A stretch of DNA of 31,264 bases from Jimgerdemannia flammicorona (lineage: Eukaryota > Mucoromycota > Endogonomycetes > Endogonales > Endogonaceae). The stretch covers positions 1-31,264 of the forward strand of contig RBNI01000443.1 of assembly GCA_003990745.1 (NCBI GenBank), written 5' to 3'. Shown here piece after piece: positions 246 to 25,200 of this stretch (position 1 is its first letter; each line of letters opens with the position of its first letter). Both the position numbers and the translations under genes were made by a program. Below the pieces are notes generated by a model that was not told the DNA's origin, did no database searches, and saw only the letters and a program-made list of their open reading frames with translations.

Positions 246-641
246 TGATGTAGTTTGGCTTGAGCCCCCAGTTACTTTGTCAAAAAGCAACAAAATGTTC
301 TAAGATTCCTGAGGTCCTTGGTGTTTAGTGGTATAATAGTTAAAGCTAGATATCTACAAGCAATTTGTATGTCGATTTCCTAATTGGGACAGTTCTCTAG
401 GTGTAGCAGCAATTTGTATGAATGGGTTTCCTTCTTGGGTCAACTGGGAATAGCAGAATTTCATGTATAGCATAATGATCTTGTGTGTGACAGTCTGGCA
501 ATTTAACAGTTCTCCTTATATGATTTCTGCATGACGATCTCTGTATAGTGTGGGTTTCCTTATGTAGGTCATTCTGATAATTTGGCGGATAACTCGATAA
601 CTCAGGCTCACTGGGAATGATGAATAATTCAGAGGTTGCAG

Positions 642-787
642 ATTCTTCCTAAATCAGTGGGCTTCTGGGAAATAACTTGAATGACACTGATTCTTCCTGA
701 ATTGGCAGCTTCAACTGGGAATACAATGGCTTGGAAATGGCAAATAGTGTGGATTCTCCTGAATCAGTGGCTTCAACTGGGAATTAA
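642..787 (-). repeat. Degenerate tandem repeat in LTR, unit 1
   Basis: Three imperfect copies of a unit containing ATTCTTCCTGAATCAGTGGC followed by TTCAACTGGGAA (plus-strand reading), starting at 642, 690 and 753. Spacing is uneven (48 and 63 bp). They lie in the long R-U5 part of the LTR. Confidence 0.65.
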
Positions 788-803
788 CTAGGATTCTTGG
801 CAA

Positions 804-886
804 GTTACATCAAAGACTGGCTTCATTTGCACAGGGTTACATCATAGACTGGCTCTACTGCGAAGTTGCATCAGAAAGACTGGCTT
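804..886 (-). repeat. Degenerate tandem repeat in LTR, unit 2
   Basis: Three copies of GTTRCATCAnAGACTGGCT (plus-strand reading) start at 804, 836 and 865, a spacing of about 30 bp. The plus-strand LTR carries more copies of the complement (AGCCAGTCTnTGATGYAAC) at about 19303-19525, so copy number differs between the LTRs. Confidence 0.7.
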
Positions 887-1132
887 GTAGCAAGAATGGC
901 AGGCTCTCTGGGAATGTGGTGAAGTTCTTCCTCGAACTTGGCAGAAAACTGGGATTCTTCAGGCTTATCTGGCAAGCGTACCAAAAATGAACTTGTTCTT
1001 TATATCAGAAAGTAGACCAGAGTGGGAAAAGGGGACCAATGCTCACAATCTCCTAACAGTAGCTGTAGAGTTCCTCTTGAAGTGTGGTAGGCAGACTTGT
1101 CTTTTGCTTTTGGATTCAATTTCAGACTGAGG

Positions 1133-1138
1133 TTTATT
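1133..1138 (-). terminator. Possible poly(A) signal in the LTR
   Basis: AATAAA on the minus strand (TTTATT on plus), about 20 bp downstream of the TATA box and conserved at the same spacing in the plus-strand LTR (19049-19054). It would mark the R region if used. Its closeness to the promoter leaves open that it is a conserved but unused motif. Confidence 0.4.
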
Positions 1139-1158
1139 CACTCTTGTCTCTGGGGTAA

Positions 1159-1164
1159 TTTATA
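1159..1164 (-). promoter_or_regulatory. TATA box in the LTR
   Basis: The minus strand reads TATAAATT here, about 275 bp inside the LTR and about 20 bp before an AATAAA. The same arrangement is conserved in the plus-strand LTR (TATAAA at 19025). It is the likely Pol II promoter of Gypsy-m by position; no transcript evidence is visible. Confidence 0.55.
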
Positions 1165-1474
1165 CAAGTTGGTTGCTATCTGGTTACTATGTAGCTAATT
1201 ATAGATTTGCTATCTATAGTATGTTTGGGCAGATGGTCACTGTCTAGCGGACAGCCACTGTCCAGGGAACAGCCACTGTTTACATTATTCCCTTCTTTAG
1301 CTATCTGGTTATTTATATATTTTTTTTTGCAGCAATGGTTGCTGGTTACTAAGCTATATATTCATGTCATCTTGGCTAATTGTTCATATCATCTGGTTAA
1401 GATATAATTTGGGTGGTACATCTTGGTTTATTACATCAGCCCCTACTAAAGGGTAGTCTGTCCTAGACTATTCT

Positions 1475-1981
1475 TCAGTTATCATCCCAATAAGCATAAG
1501 TATCCTCTGCATCTATGCCTGTTCCATCATCTTCATTGTCTGTACTGGGATCACTCCATTCTAGTTCTGGATCTTCTTCTTGTCCTTCGGGAAACAGGAT
1601 GTCTACTTGTTGGAGAATACTCTGAAAAGTGATCTCATTCATCTGATGAATATCATTGAGGTAGAAGTGAGATTGTACTAGGGCTCCAACATTTCATTTT
1701 TACAGAGTGTAGATTCGTTTGGCAGTTCTTGCTTCTTGGCGGGTTATCCTAGCTGGTTCTCTAATATATGACTGTTCTTCAAGTAATTGTCCGATATTGT
1801 AAAAGGCTTGTAGATGGTGGATCTGTAACAATCTTTGGGCAATGGCAAGGTTCTCTTGATGCTTCTGGATCAATTGTATTAGGGTTTCTTCAAGTTGGCA
1901 GAACTGGGGCAAGGGAACTGGTAGGGCTTGGAAAGAGCTGAGGATGAGGGTCTGAAGGTGCTGATCAATTCTTTGGCTCAT
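1475..1981 (-). pseudogene. ORF3 of Gypsy-m, third ORF after integrase
   Basis: A 168-codon frame from the ATG at 1981 to the TGA at 1477-1475, broken by a TAA (1702-1700) and a TGA (1696-1694). The N-terminal two thirds are rich in Leu, Gln and Glu and look helical; the last 40 residues are very acidic (DPELEWSDPSTDNEDD) and end a few tens of bases before the polypurine tract. The ATG overlaps the end of the integrase frame as ATGA (1981-1978), which suggests termination-reinitiation. The same ORF with the same ATGA overlap exists in Gypsy-p at 12439. It sits where env lies in some Gypsy elements, but there is no signal peptide or membrane segment, so Env is unlikely. I do not recognise the family. 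Confidence 0.7.
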
Positions 1982-3000
1982 AGTATAGAGGGAATATATA
2001 GTTTGAGGTGATTGATGTGTACTAGTGTTCTCAGGGTTCGTCTATCCAATACTTCTTAAATAGATGCTGGTCCCTCTGATGTTGTGTACAAGATATGGTC
2101 CTTCCCATTTTGGTTCCAGTTTGGCAGCAAAGTTTGTCTCAATCATGCTTCTCCAAACTAGGACTTGATCTCCAATTTTGATCTCCTGATCCTTCTGTTT
2201 TTGGTTATAATACTTCTTTTATCTTTCCTGAGCTTTGATAATCTGTCCTTGGGCTTGATTATGTAATTGTTCTGCCTTTTTGAAGAGGTCTCCAAGATTC
2301 TCATGGTCAGTAGTTCTAGTTCTTTTGGCAAACATCATTTCGAATAGCTTTTGTTTGGTGGAGACAACAGGGGTGTTCCAAATTTCCCATAGGATCTCAG
2401 GTAAGCAGAGGTCCCAATTAGTAGGATTGACTCGGGCAAGTCCTTTCTTGATGGTCTGGTTCATTCTTTCTGTCATACCATTGGTCTGGAGGTAGTATGA
2501 TGTGGTTCTTTTGAGGTGGATCTTGTGAATTCGGGCATAACTTGTGATGATGTTGTTGATGAATTCCATGCCTTGGTCAGAGATGAGTTCTTTTGGAGGT
2601 CCATATCTGAGTGTAAGTCTATGGAAAAGGCCTACAATGGTTAAGGCATCTGTGATTTCTATTGGGAAAGCCTTGGGCCACTTGGTCAGATATTCCACAA
2701 ATATAAGGATGTATTTGTTTCTTCTTGGTATAACTGGTAGAGGTCCAATTACATCTACTCCCCATCTCTGAAAGATGTGAATGGTTGGGGGAATCGGTTG
2801 CAAAGGGGCTTGATAGTTCTTCTTTCCTTGGTACTTCTGGCAAGTGTCACATTTCTGGATGATGTCTCAGACTTGAGCTCTGAGGTGAGGCTAATGTTGA
2901 TATTGTTTTCAGATCTTATCTTCTGTGCTTGTCTGTCCTTGGTGGGCTTTCTGATGTTTTTATCAGATGAGATCTTCTTGTTCCTTAATGGTTATAGGGA
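1978..3000 (-). pseudogene. Integrase of Gypsy-m
   Basis: The enzyme that inserts element cDNA into the genome. A zinc-binding region at about 2830-2980 includes the CDTC pair followed by QKYQGKKNYQAPL. The catalytic core keeps the D,D-35-E residues: D in GVDVIGPL, D in LISDQG and E in MTERMNQTIKKGL. The C-terminal part (about 2060-2200) has a GPY/F-like module (KLEPKWEGPYLVHNI). It ends VHINHLKLYI with a TGA at 1980-1978 that overlaps the ORF3 start. The reading frame is broken by TGA at 2911-2909 and 2869-2867, a TAG near 2895, and a 1-nt insertion near 2047 relative to Gypsy-p. It is in a different frame from RT and RNase H. No chromodomain was seen. Confidence 0.85.
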
Positions 3001-3039: not shown

Positions 3040-3420
3040 GGTTCATTGGGGCTGGCAGGAAAGTACATCAACATTGTTGTGAGCTTTCTCTGCTTTGTGG
3101 ATAATAGTGATTTTGTAATCCTGAAGGATAAGGATCCAGCAGGCTAGGATTTCAGTATGTTCCTTGCAGTTGAATAACTATTTGAGGACTGCATGGTCTG
3201 TAATCAGAGTGAATTTTTTTCTGATGAGGTAATGCTTGAACAGGGTGACCACCCATATAACTGTAAGGTATTCCAGTTTGGTGCTACCATAGTTCATCTG
3301 CTGCTGATTGGTAGCTCTGCTTGTATAAGCTATCATATGGTGCTGTTGATCGGGTCCTTCTTGGGATAGAACTGCTCCAAGGCCATCTTTAGAGGCATCT
3401 GTATACAAGATGAATGGCTT
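3040..3420 (-). pseudogene. RNase H domain of Gypsy-m
   Basis: Degrades the RNA strand of the RNA-DNA hybrid during reverse transcription. The acidic active-site residues are visible: D in FILYTDASKDGLGAVL, E in YGSTKLEYL, D in TLITDHAVLK. It is in the same frame as RT, separated by a TAG at 3423-3421. A second TAG at 3180-3178 interrupts the domain before LFNCKEHTEIL. Both TAGs are present at the same residues in Gypsy-p. The frame decays after about 3050, where a frameshift leads into integrase. Confidence 0.85.
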
Positions 3421-4458
3421 CTATAGATTGGGGCGCACAAGGATTAGTGCTGTAGTCATGTGGTTTTTGAGTTCTTTGAAGGCTTTTTCTTGTGATTCTG
3501 TCCACTTAAATGGCACTTCTTTCTTGAGAAGGATCCAGATTAGGGAAGTGATTTGGGCAAAGTCCTTGATAAACCTTCTGTAGTAGGATACTAGCATCAG
3601 GAATGATAGTGTTTCCTTTGGGGTCTTGGGTACTGGCCAATTTTTGATCTTCTTGGTTTTCTTTGGGTCTGCATGAGTTCCTTCTTTTGAGACTATGAAT
3701 CCAAGGAATTCAAGTTTCTGTTTCCCAAAGTAGCATTTCTTTGCATTTAGTCTCAAGTGGTTTTTATGGGTAAGCTTGAAGAATTCCTCTAAGTGGTGTA
3801 GGTATTCTTCGAAATTTGCTGAATAGATGTTGGAATCATCCATGTATACAATCAGACAGTGGTGGATCAAAGGGGCATAGACTGAATTCATCATCCTCTG
3901 GAAGGTGGGGGGTGCATTGCAAAGTCCAAAGGGTATTCAGAGATACTCAAATAGTTTTCCTAGCATAAGGAAGACTGTCTTTTGAATATCCTTGGGGTCC
4001 ATGGGGATCTCATGGAATCCTGCGAAGAGGTCCATACTGCTGAAGTATCTGGTATCTTGTAACTGATCCAAAAGGTCATCAATTCTGGGCAGAGGATAGG
4101 CATTCTTTTCAGTGACTGAATTGAGTTTCCTGTAATCCACGCAGAGTCTCCATCCTCCTTTCTTTGGTACAATAAATATAGGGCTAGCCCAGGGGCTGGT
4201 AGAGGGTCGGATGACTCCATTGTCTAAGAGTTCTTGTATGTGCTCTTTTTCGAATGTTTTCAAGTGATGGGGTATTCTATAGGGTTTCTGCTGGATGGGT
4301 GTTGCATTTCCTGTATTTATGCTGTGGTGGTATGATAGATTGTATGGTAGGTTGCCATAATCAGTGGTGAAGATATCTTGATATTTGTTGAGAAGTTCTA
4401 CTAGTTGTTGTTGTTGTTGAGGTGTCAATTCTTCTCCAATGTTGGTGGAAGGCTTCAC
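3421..4458 (-). pseudogene. Reverse transcriptase of Gypsy-m
   Basis: Typical Ty3/Gypsy RT in one frame of about 346 codons with one TGA (3939-3937) just before IPFGLCNAPPTF. Motifs in order are [38 protein letters not shown] (catalytic D), FGLCNAP, VYMDDSNIYS (catalytic DD, Met at the x position of YxDD), LEFLGFIVS, then the connection FKWTESQEKAFKELK. The frame upstream of 4458 opposes a TGA (about 4460) and continues in another frame up to the inversion boundary near 4719. That linker includes TIILSKGTIIGHLVP, a segment like those found between protease or dUTPase and RT in related elements. Confidence 0.9.
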
Positions 4459-4469
4459 TGTCTCCTGGG

Positions 4470-4718
4470 TCGCAGAGGGGCCTTTCCTTTCTTCTGGGAC
4501 CTTTTGCCATTTCCCAATAGGTTTAGTTCATAAACTTCCCTATGAGTTCGGTTGAGAAAAGGCACCAGGTGTCCTATGATAGTTCCTTTTGACAAGATGA
4601 TGGTCTCCCAACTTTGGTTGGTTGCTCAGGGGTGTACTGGGTTCATCTTGTCAGGAAATGTGTGTCCCTCTATGTCCAGGTATGGGATATCTTCCTTGGG
4701 TTCAAAGAAAAGGTTTCT
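4470..4718 (-). pseudogene. Linker between dUTPase and RT, Gypsy-m
   Basis: Coding remnant read on the minus strand as NLFFEPKEDIPYLDIEGHTF, then after an in-frame TGA as TIILSKGTIIGHLVPFLNR. A TGA near 4460 separates it from the RT frame. The segment resembles the pre-RT part of Gypsy pol proteins. No DTG or DSG aspartic-protease motif is visible in it. The upstream boundary at about 4717-4723 is the left breakpoint of the inverted segment. Confidence 0.5.
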
Positions 4719-5175
4719 GGGGTCAGGCTGGAAAAACCTTCATGGTCAGAACTGGATTAGCCATACAGCCACCCCAAGGAGCTTATATTCAACTGACCTC
4801 AAGATCCAGACTTGCCAGACAAGGGATAACTGTAGAAGGAGAAACCATTGACCCTAGATATACAGGCAAAATCAAGGTTATCCTATACAACAGCAGTGCA
4901 GAATGGCACTGAATCATTAGAGGACAGAAGATTGCCCAAGCAGTCTTCATGAAGATCAAGACCCCACAGTTACAGGAAGTCTCTGAACTAACCGAAGGAA
5001 CAAGACAAGCCAAGGGATTTGGAAGTTCAGACAGGGAGGAGGTACATCTCCTTCAAGTCAACCACCTCAAAAGGAATGTTCCCCAGCAAGTGTACTGGCA
5101 ACCAGTCAGACTGCACAAAAATCTCATCCTGGAGCCTGGAGAACAAACTACCTTTGAAATCTTTGCACCAAGATT
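4719..5175 (+). pseudogene. dUTPase domain (motifs 2-5), inverted segment of Gypsy-m
   Basis: dUTPase converts dUTP to dUMP and so limits uracil in newly made DNA. On the plus strand a single frame shows TFMVRTGLAIQPPQGAY, then SRSRLARQGI (motif 2), ETIDPRYTGKIKVILYN (motif 3), RGQKIAQAVF (motif 4) and ELTEGTRQAKGFGSSD (Gly-rich motif 5, ending 5032). One TGA (4910-4912) lies between motifs 3 and 4. The frame continues into HKNLILEPGEQTTFEI, which fits the piece that should precede the linker at 4718. The rest of the element is on the minus strand, and motif 1 (GYDLHS) is on the minus strand at 5203-5177, so this block is an inversion. Family assignment is firm; activity is impossible in this copy. 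Confidence 0.85.
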
Positions 5176-5176
5176 C

Positions 5177-6560
5177 ATTCTCCAGGCTGTGGAGATCATA
5201 TCCTATATCCTCTGGATGGACTTTGGTCAGGGGTTTGGCCTTGGGGTGCAGCAGGGCATACTGGGCAATATCCTTGCTGAGTTCAGGCTTTCCTAAGGCT
5301 GAGGCTCTACTAGCAAAAGGCCTCCAAGCTCTAAGGTTGAGGTGTGGCCATCTGGCTCCAGTAGAGGGGTCTCAGAGATAGTTGATTCCCCTCCTTCCTA
5401 TAGGGTCAAGTGCCTCCATAAAGTTGGTAGCATCTTCTGCCCATCCTTGGCGAGTTGCATGTCTGATGAGAGCCAGAATATCTTCTCCCAAATCATAGAT
5501 CTTGAGGATTCTTCGTTCTGGCTTCTTGGTCTGGCTTTTTTAGATCTGACCTCTGTTTTCTCCTCTCTTCAAGATATGAACTGTAACATCATGACTGAGA
5601 TGAATCTTCTGATGCCTGCAGTCTCGGCAATCTGGGTGTCTTCTATGGTTGCAGTATCCCATTGCTTGGAAATGATGTTCCCAGTTGTTTATCTCTTGTT
5701 GTCTTGAGAATCGGTACCCATCTTGGTCATAAGTGGGTGGAAGAGTAGATAAGGGGTATATTTCTGTCCAGGTGAAGAAGCCTTGTCCCCTAAATCGACT
5801 TTGTAACCTTGTGGTGACTTCTTGAAAGGTGGTAGACTGTGCAAGAGTAGCTGGGAGTTCTGGACTCTGGGGTCTCTGTCTTTCTTATTGGTCCAATAGA
5901 TGACACTGATAGCAGTAGTCTCGGGGAGAGGGGAAGACCATTTGGTGTGGACATCTTCCTAGCTGAAAAGCTTTTTTTTGGTGGGTTTCTTTCTTGGGGA
6001 TAATGGTGATTATACTGGGTCCCTCTTCGGTATTCCAAGGATTATTGTCTTCAGGTGGTGTCCAGCGAGGGTTATCCCAGGGGATGAGTTCAGGGACCTC
6101 TTCTTCTTTGGGTGCTTCCTGTTCAGGAACCTCTTGGTCAGAAGTTTCTTCTTCCTCAGATGATTCTTGACCCCAAATTGCTTGTACTTCTGCAGCTTCA
6201 GTTGCAGGTGTTTCTAGAACATGTTTGCATTTCTTCTTCTTCCTTCTGCACTCTGGGCAGGCTGTGCCAGGCGATTTCCTTGTTCCCATGATCTTGGAGG
6301 AATGCTTGAGACACTTGTGTCTCTTAAGGCAGGTGGGGCATCCTTTGGCTTCTCCTGCAATAGCTCCAATGGTAATATGGATGGTGTTCCTGGCCCACAT
6401 ATTGTCTTCTGGTCTGTCATCTACCAGGTTAATTTGGGGATTGAGTCTGGGATCATTTCCATCTTCAGATTCTTCTTCTTCTTCTTCTGTAGTAGACTCC
6501 TCACTACTGGCATATTCTTCCTGAATAGTGACCTTCTTCTTCTTCTTTGATTGCTCATAG
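5177..6560 (-). pseudogene. Upstream Cys/His-rich protein leading into dUTPase motif 1, Gypsy-m
   Basis: One minus-strand frame of about 460 codons with three stops (TAA 5887-5885, TAA 5542-5540, TGA 5374-5372), truncated upstream by LINE A. N-terminal part: basic KKKKK stretch, acidic Ser/Glu runs, then two Cys/His clusters, CPTCLKRHKCLKH and CPECRRKKKKCKH. Middle: a third cluster, YCNHRRHPDCRDCRHQKIH. C-terminal part: DLGEDILALIRHATRQGW and, at 5203-5177, GYDLHSLEN, which fits dUTPase motif 1. It occupies the Gag position, and the clusters could bind nucleic acid in place of a standard CCHC knuckle, but I do not recognise a capsid domain. No protease motif is visible. Confidence 0.6.
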
Positions 6561-6562
6561 CT

Positions 6563-9500
6563 GGTGGGTCTGGGGACAAGAATCAACTGGATTTTGACTG
6601 CCAGCTGCTGGGGCCTAGATGTTTGGAAGTCACTGGAGGCGGAATGGTGTCTATGGTCGGATCACTGGGGGCTTTTGGGACAGGGGTGCTTTGGAGGAAG
6701 TGGGGATGAGCCTGGACATTGGCGACTCAATTCCTCTTTGTTAGATGACAAGACCCAGTGGGATGAGTGGGCTAAGGACATTCAGCTGAGGGTGGAGAAC
6801 TGGTGGCTGGAAGGTGCCTCAGTTGGGGTTTGGTGGTTGAGGATGAAGGAGATGGCCAAGATTTACTGGAGTGAGACTGGCAAGGAGGCAGGGAAGCAGA
6901 GAAGGTGTAGAGTACATTGGGCTTCTACTAGATTGACTAGGCTCCTGGAGGAGTGGGCGAGGGTGAAGATGTTGGAGGGAGAAGAGGATTGGAGGTTAAT
7001 GAGGGTGAAAATGGAGGTTGGGGAACTACAACAGGTGCTGTGGGAAGAGGAAGAGGCAAGGGTACAGAGCTTGGCAGCACAGCTCCACTGGCAGGATTTG
7101 GAGGAAGGGGAGAGACCTTCCAAGTTTCTTACAAGGGCTCTTAGGGCAAGGCGGGTATAACAATGGTGGGAAGAGGTGTTGGACTCTGATGGTATACTGG
7201 TGCATGGTGTACAGGACATTCTTGGATCACTGAAGGAGAGATGGAGTAGATTGTGGAGTGAGGAGGAGGGTGGGGCAGATGCTGCAACTATTGACTGAAC
7301 ATTGGAGGATTGGCACTCACCACAAGTTAAGGGGCTAGGTGACCTGGTGATGCCTGTACAGGAAAATGAGATCCACCAGGTTCTTGCCACAACAACGCCA
7401 GGTATGGCACCTGGAGAGGATGGTCTACCCTGGGACTTTTGGAAGTGAATGGTTGGAGTCCCAGGGGTGATGGGAGAGATGACAGCATTGTGCGACTTCA
7501 TTCTACAGACTAGGAGGTGGGTGGGGGAGCAGGACCTTGGGCTGGTGATGCTGCTTTATAAAAACAAAGGAAGGTGAGAGGATTGGAAGAACTGGCAGCC
7601 GATAATGTTGCTAGATATGGACAGAAAGTTGGTGACTAAGGTGGTGGTGGCAAGACTACAGAAGGTGGCCCAGTAAGTTATGGGTGTTGAGCAGAGGGGA
7701 TTTGTGGGTGGTCGGCTCATCAGGGATAGCACTGCCTGAGTATATAGAGTTATTGAAGGGGCAAGGGCCTGTGGACTAGATAGGCATCTAGTCTACTTGG
7801 ACTAGGAGAAGGCCTACGACCGGGTGCAAAGAGTCTGGCTGGTGAAAGTTTTGGATAGGATGGGAGTTCCATTCTAATTCCAGTCAGTAATAGTCAGCCT
7901 ACTGGAAGGGAGTAGGGCTGCACTCATGTATAATGGTCATAGAGGAGTGGTATTCTCCTTGGGTAGGGGGGTGCCCCAGGGGGACCCACTGTCCCCCATT
8001 TTGTATGCTCTTTCCCTGGAACCCCTTATGGATAGAATCAGGCAGAGGATAGGAGGACTCTCTGTCTTTGGCATAGGATGGAAAGTTGGGGCCTTTGCAG
8101 ATGACATGGTGGTTGGTTTGGGTTCGATTGCTGATGTTGAAGAGCTCAAGAAGACTGTAGAGTGGTATGAGGAGAACTCTGGAGTGAAGCTGAATTAGCA
8201 TAAGTGTGAAACAATGGTGCTCGGCAATGGCCTAGTGGGAGGAGAGGTCATAGGAACAATCGTCCCCACTGGTGAAGCAGTATAGTACTTGGGCATCTAT
8301 TTGTCGGTCTATGGGTCAGTTCTGCCCAGGCTTTGGTGGGAGCAGAGGATTGGAATCTGAGAGGAGGCCCTGCGGAGTTGGGGAGGAAGACAATTTTCTC
8401 TGGCAGGACGGGTCTCAATTTTGAATGTCTACTGGCTGCCAAAGTTGTAGTACCTGGTATATCATCTGGACTTCCCAGCCTGGGTGGTGAAGAGATTGGT
8501 GAAGACAGCAAAGGGATGGATTTGGGCTGGAGGGTGGAGTCAGATTGGTTGGGAGATCTTGTCCCTACCAGTGGTGATAGGTGGTCTTGGGCTGGTTGAC
8601 TTTCCAAAATGGTTACACTGCTTGAGAGCATGGTGGCTGGAGAGGGCCATGGAATTGAGAGGAGGTGGTTGGGTTCCTCTGCTACAGAAGATCTGGGAGA
8701 GGCGGTCATTGCCAAGGGGCTCAACTGGCGATCTCCTCTCATTGGTTGGGCTTCAGAACACTAAAAAACTGCAATATAAAGGTTTTTGGTGGGGGATAGC
8801 AGAGGGGGTGCACCACATTGGAATTTGTTGGCAGGGGAATGAAGGAGAGGAGGATTGGGACCCAGTGATGTAGAGATGGAATCGCATACTATGGGTGGCA
8901 CTCCTTTAATTGAGTTCGACATTGGTGATGGAATAGAATGCCAAAGGGGACTGGGCCAGGATCTGTGGCCTAGCAGTTGGCAAGGAGTCAGAATTGGCAA
9001 AGAGTGGAACTGGCATGGTGTTTGGACCTGGAGTGCCACAGTGAGAAAGTGGATGCCACCAAAGTACTGAGTGGTCTGGTGGCACATGCTGCAGAGGAAT
9101 GTTATGCTCAACTTTCGCTCAGGGCACCTTATCATAGGGGGTTGCTTCAACTGTAAGGAGTGCCATAATGTAGGGCAGGAGGGGGGCTGTGTACAGATAT
9201 CTGAACATTGGCTAGGAGAGTGTGAGGTGTTGGGGGACTTTTGGCAGGCAATTGGGGAATGCTTGGAGGTACGACATAGGAGAGATGAAGTATGGGGGAG
9301 GTGGGAGGACTTGAGGGATAGATTGGTAGAAGGGATAGGGAAGGAGTAGATTACTTTGGGCTGGGTGTTAGCTATTTGGGTAGGGCTGGCCAGTCACTGG
9401 CTATTTGTTTTTGAGGATAGGAGTAGACAGGACTTGGGGGATTGGTTGTTGTGGTGGCGTGGGCTTATGGAAGACACCTTAACAGGCTGGTGGCTTGGTT

Positions 9501-9702: not shown

Positions 9703-9716
9703 AAAAAAAAAAAAAA
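9703..9716 (+). other. Poly(A) tail of LINE A
   Basis: Fourteen A residues following GTGACTAT, directly joined to Gypsy-p sequence GACAATAGAG at 9717. It marks the 3' end of the reverse-transcribed LINE. Confidence 0.85.
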
Positions 9717-10505
9717 GACAATAGAGTGATCCGACCCTCAACCAGTCCTTGGGCCAGCCCTATACTTATTATACCAAAGAAAGGAGGATGGAGACTATGC
9801 ATAGACTACAGAAAACTCAATTCAGTCACTAAAAAGGATGCCTATCCTTTGTCCAGAATTGATGACCTTTTGGATTAGTTACAAGATACCAGATACTTCA
9901 GCAGTAAGGATCTTTTTGTGGGATTCTATGAGATTCCCATGGACCCCAAAGACATTCAGAAGACAGCCTTTCTTACTCTAGGAAAACTGTTTGAATACCT
10001 CTTAATGCTCTTTGGACTTTGCAATACACCTCTCACCTTTCAGAGAATGATGAATTCAGTCTATATCTCTCTGATCTACTACTATCTGATTGTATATATA
10101 GATGATTCCAACATCTATTTGGCAAATTTTGAGGAGCACCTGTACCACCTAGAAGAATTCTTCAAGCTCACCTGTAAGAATCACCTGAGACTCAATGTCC
10201 TTTGAAAAACAGAGACTTGAATTTCTTGGATTTATAGTTTCAAAAGAAAGAACCCATATAGACCCAAAGAAAACCAAGAAGATCAACAATTGGCAGTACC
10301 CAAGACCCCAAAGAAAATACCATAATTCCTGATGCTAGTGTCCTACTATAGAAGGTTTATCAAGAACTTGGCCCAAATCACTACCCCAATCTGAATCCTT
10401 CTCAAGAAAGAAGTATCTTACAAATAGACAGAATTATAAGAGAAAGCCTTCAAAGAACTCATACACTGCATGAGCACAGCACCAATCCTTGTTTGGCCCT
10501 ATCTA
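9717..10505 (+). pseudogene. Reverse transcriptase of Gypsy-p (5'-truncated)
   Basis: Starts at [17 protein letters not shown] and keeps [30 protein letters not shown] (catalytic D kept), FGLCNTPLTFQRMMN and VYIDDSNIYLANFEE. Ile replaces the usual x residue of YxDD. An open stretch covers 9918-10205; after that the frame shifts (the CKKC-like segment is lost) and stops accumulate. A TAG at about 9876 (LLD*LQDTRY) replaces the CAG found in Gypsy-m. Confidence 0.85.
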
Positions 10506-10900
10506 TAGAAGCCATTCATCTTGTACACAGATATCTCCAAAGATAGCCTGGGAGCAGTTCTAGCCCAAGAAGAATCTGATCAATAATACTATATGATAGC
10601 TTATGCAAGCCAAGCTACCAATCAGCAGCAGATGAACTATGGTAGCACCAAATTGGAATGCTTTGCAGTTATATGGGCAGTCACTCTGTTCAAGCATTAC
10701 CTCATCAAAAAAATATTTACCCTGATAACTAACAATGCAGCCCTCAAATAGCTATTCAACTGCAAGGAACCTACCAGAATCCTAGCCCACTAGATTCTTA
10801 TCTTCAGGATTACAAAATTACCATCATCTACAAAACAGAGAAAGTTCACAACAATGTTGATATACTTTTCCACCAATCCCAATGAACTAGAAGAAAGGTG
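10506..10900 (+). pseudogene. RNase H domain of Gypsy-p
   Basis: Reads KPFILYTDISKDSLGAVL, then YGSTKLECFAVIWAVTLFKH and TLITNNAALK. The first two acidic positions remain (D, E); the third is N instead of the D in Gypsy-m. It is flanked by a TAG at 10506-10508 and a TAG at 10749-10751, both at the same residues as in Gypsy-m. Decayed and not functional. Confidence 0.75.
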
Positions 10901-11331
10901 TACTGAGGAACTACACTCTAAAAGAAGCTTCTCAGACCATTAAGGCTTAAGAAGATCTCATCCAAAAAGAACATCAAAAAGCCTACCAAGGATAGATGAA
11001 TATAGAAGAAAAATTGTGAACAGCATACCAGTATTGGCCCAAATTCAGAATATAAGTCTAAGATATACTCAAGAAATATGACATCTGCCCAAACTACCAA
11101 AGAAGAAAGAACTATCAAGCACCACTACAACCAATTGTACCACCAGAAAACATCTTTTAGATAGGGAGTAGAAATAATTGGACCTCTACTAGTTACACTA
11201 AGAAGGAACAAGTATATTCTTATATTCATAGAATATCTGACTAAATGGCCCAAGGCTTTCCCAATAGAAATCACAGATGTCTTGGCCATTGTAGGCCTTC
11301 TTCATGAACTCACACTCAGATATGGACTTCC

Positions 11332-11343
11332 AAAAGAACTTAT

Positions 11344-11346
<3 letters not shown>
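11332..11346. repeat. Target-site duplication of LINE E, left copy
   Basis: AAAAGAACTTATCTC, repeated exactly at 11832-11846. It is Gypsy integrase sequence (encoding KELIS) duplicated when LINE E inserted. One more T could belong to it but merges with the T run. Confidence 0.92.
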
Positions 11347-11385
<39 letters not shown>

Positions 11386-11831
11386 GTCACTCGGACTCCA
11401 TTCCTTTATTAATTCCCATCTATCCCATAGAAATACAATGATCCCACCCCCTATCCAATCCCCCTAGAGGGTCCCCTCCCTCCAACTCCTTTCTTATGAA
11501 AGACCACTTTGTCTAACACTATTGCCACCCTCTCCCCACTCTGCTCACAGATCCTCACCACCAAACCATGATGTCGGCCCCCCTGAGGACCCCAACCCAC
11601 CCACCATCCCGTCAGCAGATCCCCCAATAGCCCTTCCCATCTTAACACCTTCTCCTACAGCCCCAACCACTGCCCCTCTTCAAATACAAAAAGCCAATGA
11701 CCTGCCAGTCCTACCCATATTGCTAACATCCACCCTATAGTGAGCCAACTATCACCCACCCCACCCACAAGCCGAGATCTCAAGTTCTCCCAGTGACCTC
11801 CCTCCCCCACTAGCCTACGCCCCACACCCAA
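11347..11831 (-). mobile_element. LINE E: short 5'-truncated LINE, minus strand
   Basis: About 485 bp. It starts on the plus strand with a T run of 36 (11347-11382), the poly(A) tail of a minus-strand LINE. Next come ATAGTCACTCGGAC (complement of the family 3' box) and AATAAA on the minus strand (11405-11410). The remainder is the 3' end of ORF2. It is flanked by a perfect 15-16 bp duplication. It is closest to LINE D, judging by the shared tail text. Confidence 0.93.
11451..11831 (-). pseudogene. LINE E ORF2 C-terminal fragment
   Basis: Minus-strand reading gives ...GHWLFVFEEGQ, then LLGDLLTGWWVGWGPQGG, RICEQSGERVAIVLDKVVF and a stop after GPSRGIG at 11451. This is the Trp-rich C-terminal tail that follows the zinc finger in the other ORF2 copies. 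It shows where ORF2 of the LINE D type should end, which in LINE D lies just outside the window. Confidence 0.8.
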
Positions 11832-11846
11832 AAAAGAACTTATCTC
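11832..11846. repeat. Target-site duplication of LINE E, right copy
   Basis: Exact repeat of 11332-11346; Gypsy-p integrase continues in register immediately after it. Confidence 0.92.
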
Positions 11847-12438
11847 TGACTAAGGCACAGACTTCATCAATAACATAATTACAAGTTATGCCCAAATTCA
11901 CAAGATCTACCTCAAATGGACTACACCATATTACTCTCAGACCAATTGTATGACAGAAAGAATGAATCATACTATCAAGAAATAACTTGTCTGAGTCAAT
12001 CCTACCAACTGAGATCTCTGCTTATCTGAGATCCTATGGGAAATTTGGAACACTCCTACTGCCTTTACCAAACAAAGCTCTTTGAAATAATATTTATAAA
12101 GTAAACCAGAACTGCTGATCATGAGTACCTCAGAGACCTCCTCAAGAAGGCAAACAGTTATATAATCAAGCCTGAGTTCAGATTATCAAAGCTCAAGAAA
12201 GACAAAAGAAATACTATGATCAGAAGCAGAAGGATCAGAAGATCAAGATTAGAGATCAAGTACTAGTTTGGAGAGGCATGATCAAAATGAACTTTGCTAT
12301 CAAATTGGAGCCCAAATGAGAAGAACCTTATCTTGTTCACAATATCAGAGGAACCAGTATCTATTTAAGAAGCATGGATAGATGAACCCTGAGGATACCA
12401 GTACACATCAATTGTCTCAAGGTACCTCTCCTCATATC

Positions 12439-12878
12439 ATGAATCAGAGAATTGACAACTGCCTCCAGACTCTTGTCCTTAGTTCTCTCTAAGCTCTATC
12501 TGTTCCCCTGCCACAGTTTCAAGAACTCAATGGAATATCTTCAAAGAATCCAGGTTCATCAAGAAAACCTCACTCTGGCCAAAAGATTACTCCAAGTTCA
12601 TCAGCTAGAGGCCTACTATACAATTGAAGAATATCTGTAGAATCTTCCCCTCCCAGACCTAACCTATGTCTGCAACACTACTGGCCTGAATAGAAAGAAA
12701 TTCACTGCTGCAGAAAGACTATAACTTTAACCCAGGCACAGTTCTCCCTAAATGACCTTCAAAGAATGACCCTATCCACTTATATCATATCATCTACCAA
12801 GTTGAGACCCTATTCCCCAAGGAAGAAGAGGAGCCCTTAGAATAAAGTGACCATAGTATAGATAATGATGATGATCGA
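12439..12878 (+). pseudogene. ORF3 of Gypsy-p, 5' part (split by LINE B)
   Basis: Starts at ATG 12439, which overlaps the integrase stop as ATGA (12439-12442), exactly as in Gypsy-m. It reads MNQRIDNCLQTLVLSSL, then a TAA, ALSVPLPQF, a frameshift, IQVHQENLTLAKRLLQVHQL and, near the end, YQVETLFPKEEEEPLE followed by SDHSIDNDDD. These match the Gypsy-m protein along its length. A TAA replaces the Trp of LEWSD. LINE B inserted in the GAT-rich acidic tail; the last codons lie at 18666-18712. Confidence 0.7.
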
Positions 12879-12946
12879 CCTTTCACCAGTAACATTCAGG
12901 TGACACAAGACTCCAATAACACTTTCTACAGCATTTTTGGTGAAAG

Positions 12947-14909: not shown

Positions 14910-17900
14910 ATGAACAGTACAACTAGAATATTCTCTTTGAACATAAATGGATTGAGGGGGGCAGCTCAGTGAAGATTCATATTTAGTTGGCTCAAGGATT
15001 GGATGCAGATCTCTTCTTACTACAGGATGTATGTTATGAGGTAGATGTGGTTGGACTAGAGAATGGGGGGGGGCAGCAGTGTGGGGGGGGCAGATGGGTA
15101 TCCTTGTTTGAAAGGGGATGGGGGACATTGGTGATATTGAACAATAGGGGAGTCAGTTGGTATGGGGAGTGTGGAAGAGGCCTAGATGGAGCCCTTTGAC
15201 TGTTGGGTCTTATTACTGCCTAGCAGAGAGGGGGGAATGAGTAGATTGGATCAGAATTTTGAGAGAGGCTGGTGTCTGGGTGAGGCAGAGATCAACTGTC
15301 TAGGGGAGGATTTCAACATGGTACAGGATAATGTGGTAGACAGGACTGATGGCAGGAGAGAGTTGAGGAGCAGAAGTGGTAGGTTGGATGATTGGATGGA
15401 GATGGAGAGACTGAGTTCTTTGGTTGATTTGGGGAGACATTTTTGAGAGAATTGTCGAATTTATACTCATTGGACAGCAGGGCTGAGCTCTAGGATCAAC
15501 TGGATATTGATGGCAGAGTGCTGGAGAGCGGATGTCTGGGCTGTGCTGGAGGTGGTTTGGTGCCCTTGGTCAGATCACTGGGGTCTGTTAGGGAGAGGGA
15601 GGTTTGGGGGAAGTGGGAATGGGCCTGGACATTGGCAACTGAATTCCTCTTTGTGGAGAATGGTGCTTTATGGGCAGACTGAGTGGAGGAGGCTTTTGGG
15701 AAAATTGGTAGGTGGCAGGAGCTGGGTCTGGTGATTGGGGATCGCTGGCAGAGGCTGAAATTGAGTGCTCAGAGGTATTGGAGGGACGCAGGGAAAGGAA
15801 GGAGTGCTCAGTGGCAGCAGAGAGTGCTTTGGGCTTCATGGTGATTGGCAGCACTCCTGGGGAGATAGGCAGGGGTGCTAGAGGATTGGATGGCAGCAGA
15901 CTGGTGTATTGTGCAGATTCAAAAGGCTATTGAGGAGCTTAAGGAAGTGATATGTAGGGAGGAAGAGATTAAGCTAGAGGGGATGGTGGCAAGGCTGAGG
16001 TGACAAGGGTTGGAGAAAGGCAAGAGACCCACTCAGTTCTTATTGTGGATACTACAAGCATAGAGAACTAAACAGTGGTGGGATGGACTTTTGAATGAGG
16101 ATGGGGAGATGGTGGTGGGGACTTCAGCAATTCTGGGATTGCTAAGGACCCGCTGGGAGGATCTATGAAATGAGGAAGAAGGGGGTGAGGATGTCTCAAA
16201 CATTGAAAGGCAGTTGGAGGATTGGCATCCAGACCCAGCAATGGGCCTGGGGAATCTGGGAGACCCAGTGAAGAGGGAGAAAATTTGCAAGGTCTTGGCT
16301 TTAACAAACAAGGGGACAGCTCAGGGAGAAGATGGACTTCCCTGGGATTTTTGAAAGAAGATAGCTGGGGTGGAGGTGGTATTGGAGGAGATGATGGCAA
16401 TGTGTGATGAGGTTCTTCAGTCTGGAACTTAGATTGGGGGCCAGCACCTAGGGCTGGTCTCATTGCTCTATAAGGATAAGGAGAGAAGAGAAGATTGGAA
16501 GAACTGGTGACCAATCATGCTCCTTGATATGGACTGCAAGCTGGTGACAAAGGTCTTGGTGACTAGACTGCAAAGGATCACTCAGCAAGTACTAGGAGTA
16601 GAGCAAATAGGGTTTGTGGGTGGTTGATAGATCCGAGATGGGATGACCTGAGTCTATGGAGTGATTGAAGAGACTCGGGCTGCTGGGGTTGATGGCTGAT
16701 TAGTGTTTCTGAATCAGGAGAAGACATATAACAGAGTGAGGAGGATCTGGCTAGAGGGAGTGCTGAAATGAGTGAGTGTTCCCTCAGGGTTCAAGAGGTC
16801 ATTAATCAGTCTTTTGGACAACAGTCAGGCAGCATTAGTGGTCAATAGACACAGGGGTGTAACTTTCTGCTTGGTCATGGGGTATCACAAGGAGATCCTT
16901 TGTTGCCCATCTTATATGCCCTTTCCTTAGAGCTCCTATTGGACGGGATCAGGTATAAAATTGGGAGTTTGAACATTCTGGGGATTAATTGGAAAGTGGG
17001 GGCCTTTGCAGATGATATGGTGGTTGGACTGGGTTTGTTGGAGGATGTGGAGGAATTAAGGAGGTCTGTGGAATGGTATGAGAGGGGCTCCAATGCTAGA
17101 CTCAATTGGTACAAATGTGAGACTCTGGTGCTAGGCAGTAGAATAGTTGGCGGTAACATGATTGGGACAGTGGTGCCAGCAGGGAATTCAGTTTGCTACC
17201 TGGGGATCTACTTCTTGGTATATGGGTTGCTTCTGTCCTATACTTGATGAGAACAGCCACTCCTAGTATGGGGAAATATGCTCTTATGGTAGGGTAGTTG
17301 GTATATATCCTTAGCAGGAAGGGTGATAGTACTGAATGTATATTGGCTGCTGAAGCTATAGTATGTGGAGTATCATCTGGATTTCCCAGTATGGGTGGTC
17401 AGGTGACTTCTGAAGATAGCAAGATCATGGATCTGGGCTGAGCAGCAAAGTCAAATAGGATGAGAGGTTCTGACCCTACTGGTGGACAAAGGTGGGCTAG
17501 GCTTGATAGACTTTACCAAATGCCTGCATTGCTTACAAGCATGGTGGCTGAAGCAGGCAAGCAAGTTGAGGGGCCAGGAGTGGGTGCCACTCATGCAAAG
17601 GGTGTGGGAGGCCTGGTACTCTCCCTATGGAGTATCTGGTGATCTGCTTGCAATAGTGGCCCTGGATGGGAGTAAGAGGATGTATTATAGGAGCTTTTGG
17701 TGAGAAGTGGTGGATGGTGCTAGGAGAATTGGACTTAGGTGGCAGGGTGATAAGGGAGAGGAAGATTGGAGACTGCAGATATGGAGATAGGACAGGCTAC
17801 TGCTGGGTGGTGCTTTGGTGGAGGATTTTCAGCTTAGTGATGGAATGGATTGTAAACAGGACTTAGGGAGGGATCTGTGGCCTGAAGTATGGCAGAGGGT

Positions 17901-18560
17901 TGGGATTGGCAAAGAGTGGGACTGGAATGGACTTTGGCCTTGGAGCAAGCAGATATTGTAGTGACTTTCTCCCAAGTTCTGAGTGGTATGGTGGCAGTTT
18001 CTAAGGCAGAATATGATGTTGAACTATTGGTCTGGGCACTTGGTAGTGGATGGCATATTTGAGTGTAATGAATGTTTGGATGTTGAACAGGAGAGAGGAG
18101 TGATACAAATACCTGAACATTGGCTTGGTGAGTGTGATATCTTAGGAGAGTTTTGGTACCACATTGCAGACCAGTTAGAGCTGCAAGCCCTGGCAGGTGG
18201 GGAAGGGGGGAGATGGGGAGACCTCTGCCAAAGGCTAGTGGGAGGGGTTGGGGACAAATGGCTGACCCTGGGATAGGCTCTGGCAATTTGAGTGGAGCTG
18301 GCTGGGCATTGGTTACATATATTCAAGGAGAGCCAGTAGGTTGGAGTTGAGGCTAGGGTGGTATGATGAAAATGGCTATTACTGGACATTTTGAATAGCT
18401 GGTGGAGAGGGTGGAGACTGAGTGGGGGGAGCTGACAGAGTTTGGTATATTGTATTTACTAGAAAAGTGGTGGGAGGATTTGGATATTGGGTGACTGGGT
18501 TATCCTCCAACAGAGAGAGATGGAGAGTAGAGAGGTAGATCCAAGGGGTATTGGTTGAGA
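14910..18560 (+). pseudogene. LINE B ORF2
   Basis: Starts ATGAACAGTACAAC with FSLNINGLRG. Endonuclease remnants include LLQDVCYEVD, DFNMVQDNVVDRTDG and PWSDHWGLLGRG. RT remnants include LVTKVLVTRLQ, LPILYALSLELLLDGI, FADDMVVGLGL and RLNWYKCETLVLG. The finger is kept as CNECLDVEQERG then PEHWLGEC. There are numerous stops and several frameshifts. The first Gly of GGDFN has become Glu (GEDFN). Not functional. Confidence 0.8.
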
Positions 18561-19525: not shown

Positions 19526-20018
19526 TCAAGAATCTATGACATCTGAGTTATCCAAGTTATCCATATTATCCAAGTTATTCATCTATTCTCAGTGAGACTA
19601 ATTCAGAAGATTCTGCACTACTCTCTATTCCTAAAAGCTCACTGATTCAGGAGAATCTGTACCCAAATCAAGTTATCTACCAAATTGTCAGATTGTCCTA
19701 TATAAGGAATCTTGCCATATTATACAGAGATCACCTGCCACTCAAGAAGAAAATCAGATCAACTTGCATAAGGAACTCATCCTGCTATATAGAGATTGTT
19801 ATGCTATACAAGAGATTATCACACAGAAATTGTATACTTTTGAAGAATATTTATGCTATACAAATCACTACTATATTCAGAGAACTATCTCAATAAGAAA
19901 ATCAACCATTATATTGAGACTTGACTATTATACCACTAAATACTAAGGACCTCAGAAATCTTAGAACATTTTATTACTTTTTGACAAAGTAACTGAGGGC
20001 TCAAGCCAAACTACATCA

Positions 20019-20210
20019 ACCTCCAATCTTGTAATTTGCCTCTATTGAGTCAGATATATTATAATATGACCAGAGATTATTCTACTTTACTACTATTTTC
20101 ATTCAGTCAATACTAAAAGAATGAGATAAATAAATAATTAGGTTGAGATAGAGATAATTTATCAATTCTATAGTACCAGATATTAATAACTTACTTATAT
20201 ATGAGAGCAT
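20019..20210. other. Flank between Gypsy-p LTR and LINE C, no gene
   Basis: AT-rich spacer. Its first part (ACCTCCAATCTTGTAATTTG...) resembles the flank of the Gypsy-m LTR read in reverse complement (about 190-245). The rest is too diverged to align by eye. It is interrupted at 20211 by the 5' end of LINE C. Confidence 0.5.
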
Positions 20211-22207: not shown

Positions 22208-25200
22208 ATGAATAGTACAACCAATATTTTTTCTTTGAATGTCAATGGGCTTAGAGGGACTGGGAGGAGACGTATGATTTTTGGATGGCTGAAGAAACTG
22301 GAGGCAGATCTTTTTTTACTTCAAGATGTATGGTATGAGGGGGAGGAAGATGGCCTGGAGTGGACGAGAGAGTGGGGTGAGGAGGCAGTTTGGTAGGGTA
22401 AAGTGGGAATCCTGGTTAGGAAGGGGAAAGGGGACATTGTGGACACTGGACATTGGGGCAGTAGATTAGTGTGGGGGACATGGCATAGGCCTGGTTGGAA
22501 CTCAATTGTGGTGGGATCATGTTACTGCCCGGCTGAAAGAGGGACCCAAGTGGAGTAGATTGGAGATCTGTGAGACTCTGGGCTCTTGGTTGAGGCTGGG
22601 GTGGATTGTCTGGGAGGTGACTTTAATATGGTACAGGAGAGTAGACTGGACAGAACTGATGGGAGACAGGGTATGACAGGAAGGAGTGGGGGATTGGAGG
22701 ACTGGGAAGAGGTGGAAAGGCTCAGCTCACTGGTGGATGCCATGTGACTTCAGAATGGGGATCGACGTTTATATACTCACTGGGTTGGAGGACTTGGTAC
22801 TAGGATTGATTGGATTCTGACTGCTGAGTATTGGGGTGATACAGTTTGGGAGATGATGGAGGTTGAGTGGTGTCCTTGGTCAGATCACTGGGGTATTCGG
22901 GGAGGTGGGAGGTTTGGAGGGAGTGGAGAGGGGCCAGGACATTGGCGTCTGAACTCTTCGTTGCTGGATGAGATGGATCTGTGGAATGCATGGGTGGTAG
23001 AGGTGCGATACAAGGTTAATAACTGGAGGCGAGCCAGGATGAGGATTGGAGATAGGTGGTGTAGACTGAAATCTGAAGCTCAGAGGTACTGGGGGGAAGT
23101 GAGGAAGGAGTGAGGTGCTCAGCAGAGGAGACAAGTCAGATGGGCATCTAGGAGACTAGAAAGATTACTTCTGAATTAGGCTGGGTTACTGGAGGAGGAG
23201 GAGGTATTGGACTGGAAGGCTAAGCAGGCTAAGCTGGAAGTGGTGGAACTACAGGATTTGTTGAGGAAAGAGGAAGCGATGCAGGCACAGGCTATGGCAG
23301 CAAGACTACAGTGGCAGGGATTGGAAGAAGGAGAACAGCTCACAAGGTTTTTGTCTCATCTTCTTCATGCTAGGGGAGCAAGACACTGGTGGGAAGGGGT
23401 CCTTAATGATGAGGGAGAGATGGTATTAGGTGTTCAGGGGATTCTTGCCCAGCTGAGCACCCATTGGAGTAACCTCTGGAGTGAAGAGGAGGGAGGAGAG
23501 GTGGTGCAGAACATTGAGTGGCATCTAGAGGAGTGGTACCCAAATCCTGCAGCAGGGCTGGGGGACATTGGCCAACTGGTTTTGGGAGAGGAGATCCTTC
23601 GAGTTCTGGCATCAACAGCCCTGGGAATGGTACCTGGGGAGGATGGTTTGCCTTGGGACTTTTGGAAATGGATGGCATCCATTGAGGAGGTTCTGGGGGA
23701 GATGTCGCTGATGTGTGATGCAGTCATCAGTAATGGGGAGTGGATTGGAGGGCAGCAGTTGGAGCTGGTATCCCTGCTGTATAAGGACAAAGGGCGTAAG
23801 GAGGACTGGAAGAATTGGAGGCCAATTATGCTTCTGGATATGGACCACAAGTTGGTCACCAAAATCCTGGTGGCGAGACTACAGGGGGTGGCCCAACAGG
23901 TGCTAGGGAAGGAGCAGCGAGGATTTGTTGGGGGCCAACTGATCTGAGATGGCACAGCATGGGTTCACGGTGTCATTGAAGGTACTAGGGCAGCAGGGGT
24001 GGATGGCCGCTTGGTCTTCCTGGACCAGGAGAAGGCCTATGATAGGGTTCAGAGAGTATGATTAGAGAAGGTACTGGAGCGCATTGGGGTACCAGTGGGC
24101 ATGTGTTGGTCAATTATTGGACTACTGGAAGGGAGTCGGGCTGCAATTCTGGTGAATGGACACAGGGGGGCTTCCTTCCCCTTGGGGAGGGGGGTGTCTC
24201 AGGGAGATCTGCTGTCACCTATCCTCTACGCCTTCACTCTGGAGCCGTTGTTGGATCGGATCCGGCACAGAGTTGGTGGACTGAATATCTTGGGCATCAA
24301 TTGGAAGGTGGGGGCCTTTGCAGATGATATGGTGGTTGGGTTGGGCTCAGTGGTGGATGTGGCCATACTCAAGGAGACAGTTGAGTGGTATGAGAGATGC
24401 TCTGGGGCGAAACTCAACTGGCACAAGTGTGAGACAATAGTTCTTGGGGAAGGAGTCATAGGGGGGGACATCATTGGAACAATTGTCCCAGCTGGAGGAG
24501 TGGTATGGTATTTGGGTATCTTTTTCTCAGTGTATGGCTCTTTACTTCCCAAAGAGTGGTGGGAGCACAAGCTGGTAGAATGGGGGAAAGTACTGACGAG
24601 TTGGGATGGCAGGCAGGTGTCACTGGCGGGAAGGGTAACTGTTCTGAATGTGTATTAGATGCCGAAGCTTTGGTATCTGGGCTACCATTTGGACTTCCCT
24701 AAGTGGGTGGTTAAAAAGCTTCTCAAGATGGCCTGCTCTTGGCTCTGGGCTGGACACCAGAGTCAGATTGGCTGGGAGATACTAGCACTTCCTGTGGATC
24801 GTAGAGGTCTTGGCCTGGTGGACTTTCCCAAGAGGCTACTCTGCTGGAGGGCATGGTGGATGAAGAGGGCCAGTGAGTTGAGAGGAGGTGAATGGGTGCT
24901 CCTTATGTGGTGTTTGTGGGAGGTGAGGGTGTCGCCATGGGGTGGCTCAGGAGATCTACTGTCCTTGGTGGTCTTGGATGGTAGCCAGAGGATGCGATAT
25001 AAAGAATTCTGATGGGGAGTGGAAGATGGGACCCATCGCATTGGGATCCATTGGCGAGGTACTGAAGGGGAGGAGGACTGGGGTCCAGAGATGTGGAGGT
25101 GGGACAGACTCTTGTTGGGAGGGAATCTGGTCAAGGACTTTACTTAGAGGAGGGTATGGAGTGCCTTAGGGGTCTGGGGCAGGACCTTTGGCCAGAGACC

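What the first reader, a model, noticed from the sequence alone, without database searches (positions are those of the whole stretch)
1475..1981. Conserved ORF3 after integrase, overlapping pol by ATGA
In both Gypsy copies an ORF starts in the 4-nt overlap ATGA with the end of the integrase frame (1981-1978 minus; 12439-12442 plus). Both copies keep the same protein: MxQRID start, HQENLxxAxRLLQ helix, QVxxLFP, LExSDxSxDNxDD acidic tail. ORF length is about 168 codons and it ends just before the polypurine tract. Such an overlap fits termination-reinitiation. No membrane segment is seen, so it is not a typical Env. I do not recognise the family; it may be an undescribed accessory protein of this lineage.
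Basis: partly seen in the sequence, partly recalled or inferred. Interest (0 to 1): 0.75.

Follow-up and report, generated by a model that had tools for sequence, protein, structure and literature searches.

The report
Swappable third gene of fungal retrotransposon
A jumping element in a fungal genome carries, after its copying enzymes, a third small gene for a helical protein with an acidic tail that has been kept by selection and whose core has been exchanged between otherwise similar elements, which hints that it recognises some partner.

Summary
The ORF after integrase is a real gene of this Ty3/Gypsy family, but both window copies are dead. Copy 1 (1475-1981, minus) has two in-frame stops. 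Copy 2 (from 12439, plus) has stops and frameshifts and is cut by a LINE near 12879. The ATGA overlap with pol is present in 41 of 45 genome copies examined. The ORF3 frame is under purifying selection: dN/dS 0.11-0.25 between subfamilies, lowest of six frames. Complete 169-172 aa relatives lie in public sequence sets, with no significant Pfam, PDB or fold match. Helices and an acidic tail, no membrane segment.

The unexpected result: ORF3 comes in at least four types on nearly one pol backbone. Between types, transversions differ by 0.009-0.024 per site in pol but 0.067-0.208 in the ORF3 core, and pol data reject each type as one clade. So the core has been exchanged between element lineages. 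The window's copies carry types A and B3.

Best reading: an accessory adaptor translated by stop-restart after pol, with an exchangeable partner-recognising core and a common acidic tail. Anatomy is well supported; function is inferred.

The parts
1475..1981 (-). ORF3 of Gypsy copy 1 (type A), decayed: two in-frame stops
1978..1981 (-). ATGA: ORF3 start overlapping the pol stop (in this copy pol has shifted frame upstream)
2222..2866 (-). integrase part of pol, copy 1
   Evidence: rve PF00665 1.3e-07, just under its cut-off
3181..3420 (-). RNase H part of pol, copy 1
   Evidence: PF17917 4.5e-27
3424..4527 (-). reverse transcriptase part of pol, copy 1, in two open pieces
   Evidence: RVT_1 2.7e-09 (3940-4527) and 7.6e-17 (3424-3936)
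4601..5293 (+). dUTPase stretch lying antisense to copy 1, probably an in-place inversion (edges approximate)
   Evidence: PF00692 1.6e-08 and 2.8e-05; on one strand in another copy; same strand as ORF3 on five contigs compared by eye
5543..6661 (-). region between gag and dUTPase of copy 1, Cys-rich
   Evidence: same protein stretches as in L080 by eye
246..1438 (-). putative 3' LTR of copy 1; begins 36 nt after ORF3; outer end uncertain
   Evidence: TGATGT...ACATCA read by eye; 215-353 matches 19911-20049 beyond that end
9716..12441 (+). pol of Gypsy copy 2 (RT to integrase end), decayed; 11475-11792 inside it matches a LINE end in reverse
   Evidence: inverted-repeat arms with copy 1, and pair I4
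12439..12878 (+). ORF3 of Gypsy copy 2 (type B3), frameshifted, with stops, cut by a LINE

Best explanation
ORF3 is the third gene of a dUTPase-bearing Ty3/Gypsy family (gag - dUTPase - RT - RNase H - integrase - ORF3 - LTR) in a fungus. Shown: about 170 aa, purifying selection, a start codon inside the pol stop (ATGA), predicted helices, an acidic tail with no basic residue, no membrane segment, and a core exchanged between element lineages while the neighbouring pol is shared. Inferred: ribosomes ending pol restart on the same AUG and make a small amount of ORF3. The helical core recognises a partner that differs between element types or hosts, and the common acidic tail (ending in aromatic residues and aspartates) binds a constant partner such as the element's nucleoprotein or host chromatin. 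New combinations arise by template switching between co-packaged RNAs within pol or ORF3 codons 1-12 and near the acidic tail and polypurine tract. Confidence: gene and core exchange about 0.9; stop-restart translation about 0.65; partner-recognising adaptor about 0.35.
For: dN/dS in frame: AxB1 0.25 (203 pairs), AxB2 0.18 (87), B1xB2 0.11 (21), the lowest of six frames in each set. ATGA in 41 of 45 copies; the second codon varies (mostly AGC/AGT, also ACT, ACC, AAT, AGG) but begins with A, as the pol TGA needs, in 44 of 45. Core exchange: pol dS A1xB1 0.23 (within A1 0.18, within B1 0.17) against ORF3 core dS 1.99, while A1xA2 have pol 0.36 and ORF3 0.30. Transversions only: A1xB1 pol 0.011 vs ORF3 0.188; A1xA2 pol 0.022 vs ORF3 0.005. 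Trees of 35 copies: the four types need 3 changes on the ORF3 tree (expected, as they were named from ORF3) and 8 on the pol tree; AU p 0.0147, 0.00143, 0.000178, 0.0214 for A, B1, B2, B3 held as one clade on pol. Junction: A2xB1 share codons 2-12 (pS 0.07), then differ at pS 0.57-0.74. The dUTPase about 3 kb upstream does not separate types: a 61-62 aa piece is 87-92% identical to the window's in four typed B1 contigs and 82-89% in ten type-A contigs. Acidic tail 0 K/R and 11-18 D/E; hydropathy.
Against: No expression data and no known fold. One structure model is moderate (pLDDT 78.0, the other four of five 62.2-43.6); the model of the other type is poor (43.6), so only the helices can be relied on. 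RNA structure at the overlap is not convincing (3 of 32 pairs with changes on both sides). Most scored copies have stops. Within B1 frame-0 dN/dS is only 0.41. The types are still clustered on the pol tree (8 changes against a shuffled mean of 18.3; 7 of 8 B2 rows under one starred node), so exchange is occasional, and only 6 of 32 inner pol branches are starred. Only about 480 nt of pol were compared. The tail is not fully shared: transversions 0.030-0.090 between types, against 0.003-0.013 within A1, A2, B1 and B2. Selection does not tell function.
Confidence: 0.6

Rival explanations
1. ORF3 is a separately encoded integration tether that takes the place of the chromodomain which follows the integrase in chromoviruses; types differ in the chromatin or DNA mark they read.
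For: It sits directly after the integrase C-terminus; no chromodomain was found in the last 167 pol codons of the one copy tested; the acidic tail could bind histones (inference).
Against: No similarity to a reader domain; no integration-site data.
Confidence: 0.2
2. ORF3 is a counter-defence factor (anti-silencing, or against the C-to-T decay seen in the copies); core types track host defences.
For: Most stops seen in ORF3 of type-A copies are of C-to-T or G-to-A type, so hypermutation or deamination acts on the family; diversity is kept and exchanged.
Against: No direct link of ORF3 to the decay; stops occur in types A, B1, B2 and B3; no homology to known suppressors was found.
Confidence: 0.2
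3. ORF3 is a structural protein (minor particle component or Gag partner) whose core co-evolves with Gag.
For: Helical, small, last gene; the acidic tail could bind the zinc-knuckle part of Gag (inference).
Against: No similarity to one piece of the family's gag (probability 0.1%); gag was not compared between types.
Confidence: 0.15
4. ORF3 is an Env-like or Env-relic protein.
For: Position after pol, as in env-bearing Gypsy elements.
Against: No transmembrane-like stretch in 4 of 4 proteins and 0-1 cysteine; helices only.
Confidence: 0.03
5. There was no exchange: ORF3 simply evolves faster than pol.
For: ORF3 dN is higher than pol dN between types.
Against: The excess is as large at silent sites (dS 1.30-1.99 vs 0.23-0.46) and at transversions, and the trees conflict.
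Confidence: 0.04
6. The mosaics are assembly chimeras between repeated copies.
For: Short contigs and a highly repeated family.
Against: Each type is seen in several copies (A 14, B1 8, B2 8, B3 5 rows), all with a pol close to the others; the position of the junction was examined only on group averages, not copy by copy.
Confidence: 0.05

Closest known systems
Fungal Gypsy elements with dUTPase and 'add. [quoted passage not shown] section 5 and passages read)
   Same: Fungal Ty3/Gypsy, dUTPase domain, extra ORF of unknown function named in the legend of Figure 3
   Different: The paper treats chromoviruses and Ylt1-like elements; the figure and the sequences of its additional ORFs were not seen, so identity with ORF3 is untested; no core exchange in the parts read
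Bdelloid rotifer LTR retrotransposons with ORF3 (PMC5408684; abstract and passages read)
   Same: dUTPase-bearing retrovirus-like pol followed by a variable ORF3 acquired or lost between lineages
   Different: Their ORF3s are GDSL esterases, DEDDy exonucleases, env-like or TM proteins, typically on spliced messages; here one homologous helical protein in several types with an ATGA overlap
Retand elements of plants (PMC11963269; abstract and outline read)
   Same: Extra ORF between pol and 3' LTR, unknown function, possible regulatory role
   Different: Those ORFs are antisense and mostly encode TRP28; ORF3 here is sense and overlaps pol by ATGA
Coupled termination-reinitiation at overlapping stop-start codons in victoriviruses and the SART1 LINE (review PMC5972666; passages read)
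   Same: Stop and start codons overlap; downstream cistron on the same RNA
   Different: Studied by experiment there; here inferred from sequence, and for the last gene of an LTR element

Membership tests
Ty3/Gypsy LTR retrotransposon | RT - RNase H - integrase order | tested here: met
   (integrase hit just under the Pfam cut-off)
Ty3/Gypsy LTR retrotransposon | two LTRs | tested here: inconclusive
   Putative 3' LTR only, by eye; outer end uncertain
Ty3/Gypsy LTR retrotransposon | gag with zinc knuckle | tested here: inconclusive
   zf-CCHC 0.0084, under its cut-off, in one copy
Chromovirus | chromodomain after integrase | tested here: not met
   No chromodomain at E 0.1 in the last 167 pol codons of the one copy tested
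Env-bearing Gypsy (errantivirus-like) | transmembrane Env as ORF3 | tested here: not met
   Maximal 19-residue hydropathy 0.94-1.36 in 4 of 4 proteins
Coupled termination-reinitiation | overlapping stop and start | tested here: met
   41 of 45 copies ATGA; 19 of 45 with the last 30 pol codons open up to it
Coupled termination-reinitiation | RNA element near the overlap | tested here: inconclusive
Coupled termination-reinitiation | downstream product depends on upstream termination | not testable with these tools
   needs a reporter assay
Bdelloid ORF3 enzymes (GDSL, DEDDy) | enzyme domain | tested here: not met
   No Pfam family over its cut-off in 4 of 4 proteins

The most novel reading that the evidence does not exclude
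ORF3 is a recognition protein of a retrotransposon whose core exists as several interchangeable types maintained within one genome, exchanged between sibling elements by recombination like a specificity cassette, so that elements tell partners (host factors or sibling elements) apart.
Probability: 0.3. Interest if true: 0.75.

Novelty: new variant of a known kind. Interest (0 to 1): 0.52.

Why it matters
Extra genes of LTR retrotransposons are often noted and rarely understood. Here one can be read by comparison: it is kept by selection, its start is tied to the pol stop, and its core is exchanged between elements that otherwise share a backbone. That pattern is expected of a protein with a variable partner, and the many copies in one genome make the question testable by computation (insertion sites, gag types and decay per ORF3 type) before any experiment.

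Full report
What the window holds. The window is contig C443 of a genome held as 134.8 Mb in 7,754 contigs, a fungus by 22 matches of the fungal transcription-factor domain PF04082, with none in 14 named control genomes. It holds a Gypsy copy on the minus strand (RT, RNase H and integrase between 2222 and 4527), a second one on the plus strand (arms of inverted repeats between 9716 and 12375), and four related LINE-like stretches on the plus strand (repeat families D1-D3, D5 and D6; RT in 28726-30195, E 2.2e-23).

Check of the observation. ATGA is at both places given, and the motifs are there. Neither copy is open. Copy 1 has stops at codons 94 and 96. In copy 2 the motifs lie in different frames, and a LINE-like 5' end, also seen at about 20206, follows the acidic stretch at about 12879 (by eye). 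In copy 1 the integrase is itself in the ORF3 frame, so the pol frame shifts before the overlap. Of 45 genome copies examined (35 of type A, 10 of type B, all taken from the best-scoring matches), 41 have ATGA, and in 19 the last 30 pol codons are open and end at that TGA.

The family. ORF3 is highly repeated: 1,121 and 1,253 first-look candidates, of which 150 were scored each time. With a 141-aa query 8 of 150 have no stop in the matched stretch (one is the query itself); with a 172-aa query 12 of 150. Of 35 type-A copies, 6 were dropped for indels, and 0 of the remaining 29 are open, with 1-6 stops each, mostly of C-to-T or G-to-A type. Three complete ones have 169-172 aa, and one of 183 aa starts further upstream. 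One of them is about 89% identical to type-B2 copies of this genome, so it may come from the same or a near species.

Selection. With stop codons skipped, dN/dS in the ORF3 frame is 0.25 (AxB1, 203 pairs), 0.18 (AxB2, 87), 0.11 (B1xB2, 21), 0.25 (AxA, 406), 0.41 (B1xB1, 21) and 0.17 (B2xB2, 3). The five other frames give 0.29-2.84, and frame 0 is lowest in each set. The ten type-B copies used there were picked partly because their ORF3 had no stop.

The overlap. The second codon is AGC in 35, AGT in 5 and one each of GGC, AGG, ACT, ACC and AAT in the 45 copies. Several relatives begin MN or MT, and copies of types B2 and B3 begin MN. So the residue varies while the A that completes the pol TGA is kept in 44 of 45. 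The base at -3 is A in 44 of 45. Consensus folding around the overlap gave only weak covariation.

The cassette. A sliding comparison (14 of the 35 type-A copies and 10 type-B copies) shows pol at 0.77-0.95 identity between types, like the 0.75-0.95 within A2 and B1, a fall to 0.49-0.85 over the ORF3 core, and a return to 0.85-0.92 for type A against B1 over the tail and what follows. At silent sites A1 and B1 differ by 0.23 in pol but 1.99 in the core, while A1 and A2 differ by 0.36 in pol and 0.30 in the core (group means there used 6 A1, 8 A2, 7 B1 and 3 B2 copies). Counting transversions only, which C-to-T and G-to-A decay does not touch, pol differs by 0.009-0.024 between the main types and the core by 0.067-0.208 (14 A, 8 B1, 8 B2 and 5 B3 rows). 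Trees of the same 35 rows agree: the four types, named from ORF3, are each one group on the core tree (supports 100/100, 90/95, 100/100, 100/99; stems 0.73, 0.079, 0.27, 0.30). On the pol tree they need 8 changes instead of 3, and AU tests reject each type as one clade (p 0.0147, 0.00143, 0.000178, 0.0214). Against free mixing: the types are still clustered on the pol tree (8 changes, shuffled mean 18.3; 7 of 8 B2 rows under one starred node), and 6 of 32 inner pol branches are starred, so the contrast in branch length is the stronger argument and exchange looks occasional. One junction is visible near codon 12: A2 and B1 share codons 2-12 (pS 0.07, few sites) and then diverge. The tail is intermediate (pS 0.33 for A2xB1, 0.57-0.69 for AxB2; transversions 0.030-0.090 between types), so the 3' junction is not uniform. 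Window copy 1 is type A and copy 2 is type B3.

The protein. In four proteins the core is about neutral (11-13 K/R, 8-14 D/E), the tail has no basic residue and 11-18 acidic ones, there are 0-1 cysteines, and there is no membrane-like stretch. AlphaFold gives helices for a B-type protein (best model pLDDT 78.0, the other four 62.2 to 43.6) and mostly the same helices at low confidence for an A-type one (43.6), so the tertiary fold is not established. No solved or viral structure matches significantly, nor a PDB sequence or Pfam family.

The rest of the element. In one other copy a gag-like stretch, a weak zinc knuckle (0.0084), a Cys-rich stretch and dUTPase (3.5e-21) lie on the ORF3 strand. 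No chromodomain follows the integrase in the one copy tested. The dUTPase does not separate the ORF3 types.

How it most likely works. Shown: a selected gene, a kept ATGA, an exchanged core. Inferred: after pol has been made, some ribosomes restart on the overlapping AUG and make ORF3. The core meets a partner that varies, the tail one that does not. Template switching between two packaged RNAs makes new combinations because the flanks (pol, first codons, tail and polypurine tract) are alike enough. A tether beside an integrase without chromodomain, a counter-defence factor and a structural partner are the main alternatives; the data do not choose among them.

What is known. Fungal Gypsy elements with dUTPase and with an additional ORF of unknown function are in print (PMC2864245, section 5 read). 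Variable ORF3s after a dUTPase-bearing pol are known in rotifers (PMC5408684, abstract and passages). Extra ORFs before the 3' LTR are known in plants, but antisense (PMC11963269, abstract). Reinitiation at overlapping stop-start codons is known in victoriviruses and SART1 (PMC5972666, passages). I found no description of this protein or of exchange of such a core in the listings of searches.

Noticed in passing
window 4601-5293 (+): dUTPase stretch in reverse orientation inside the minus-strand Gypsy copy 1; looks like an in-place inversion of roughly 0.4 kb or an assembly error, since five other contigs have it on the ORF3 strand.
   Followed up: partly
window 6538-9233, 15451-18145, 22761-25456, 28193-30889 (+): Four LINE-like stretches 62-75% alike; Pfam RT in a piece of the fourth (2.2e-23) and weakly in the third (0.0001), weak endonuclease in the fourth. 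One seems inserted in ORF3 of Gypsy copy 2, with the rest of that copy's LTR at 19911-20049.
   Followed up: partly
window 11475-11792: Stretch inside the integrase region of Gypsy copy 2 that matches 30947-31264 in reverse (82%), i.e. probably a LINE fragment inserted there.
   Followed up: no
L080:1330-1581 (-): Cys-rich stretch between gag and dUTPase with a sub-threshold match to the fungal Zn2-Cys6 cluster (0.021); a similar stretch is at window 5888-6661 (-).
   Followed up: no
L078: The only one of 7 5.8S rRNA matches over the cut-off lies in an AT-rich stretch (locus GC 0.36, two loci with host genes 0.57-0.59), so point-mutation decay may also have hit an rDNA copy.
   Followed up: no
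L009-L038: A1 and A2 copies differ strongly at silent sites in ORF3 codons 2-12 (pS 0.57, few sites) although the rest of their core is alike, a second small mosaic.
   Followed up: partly
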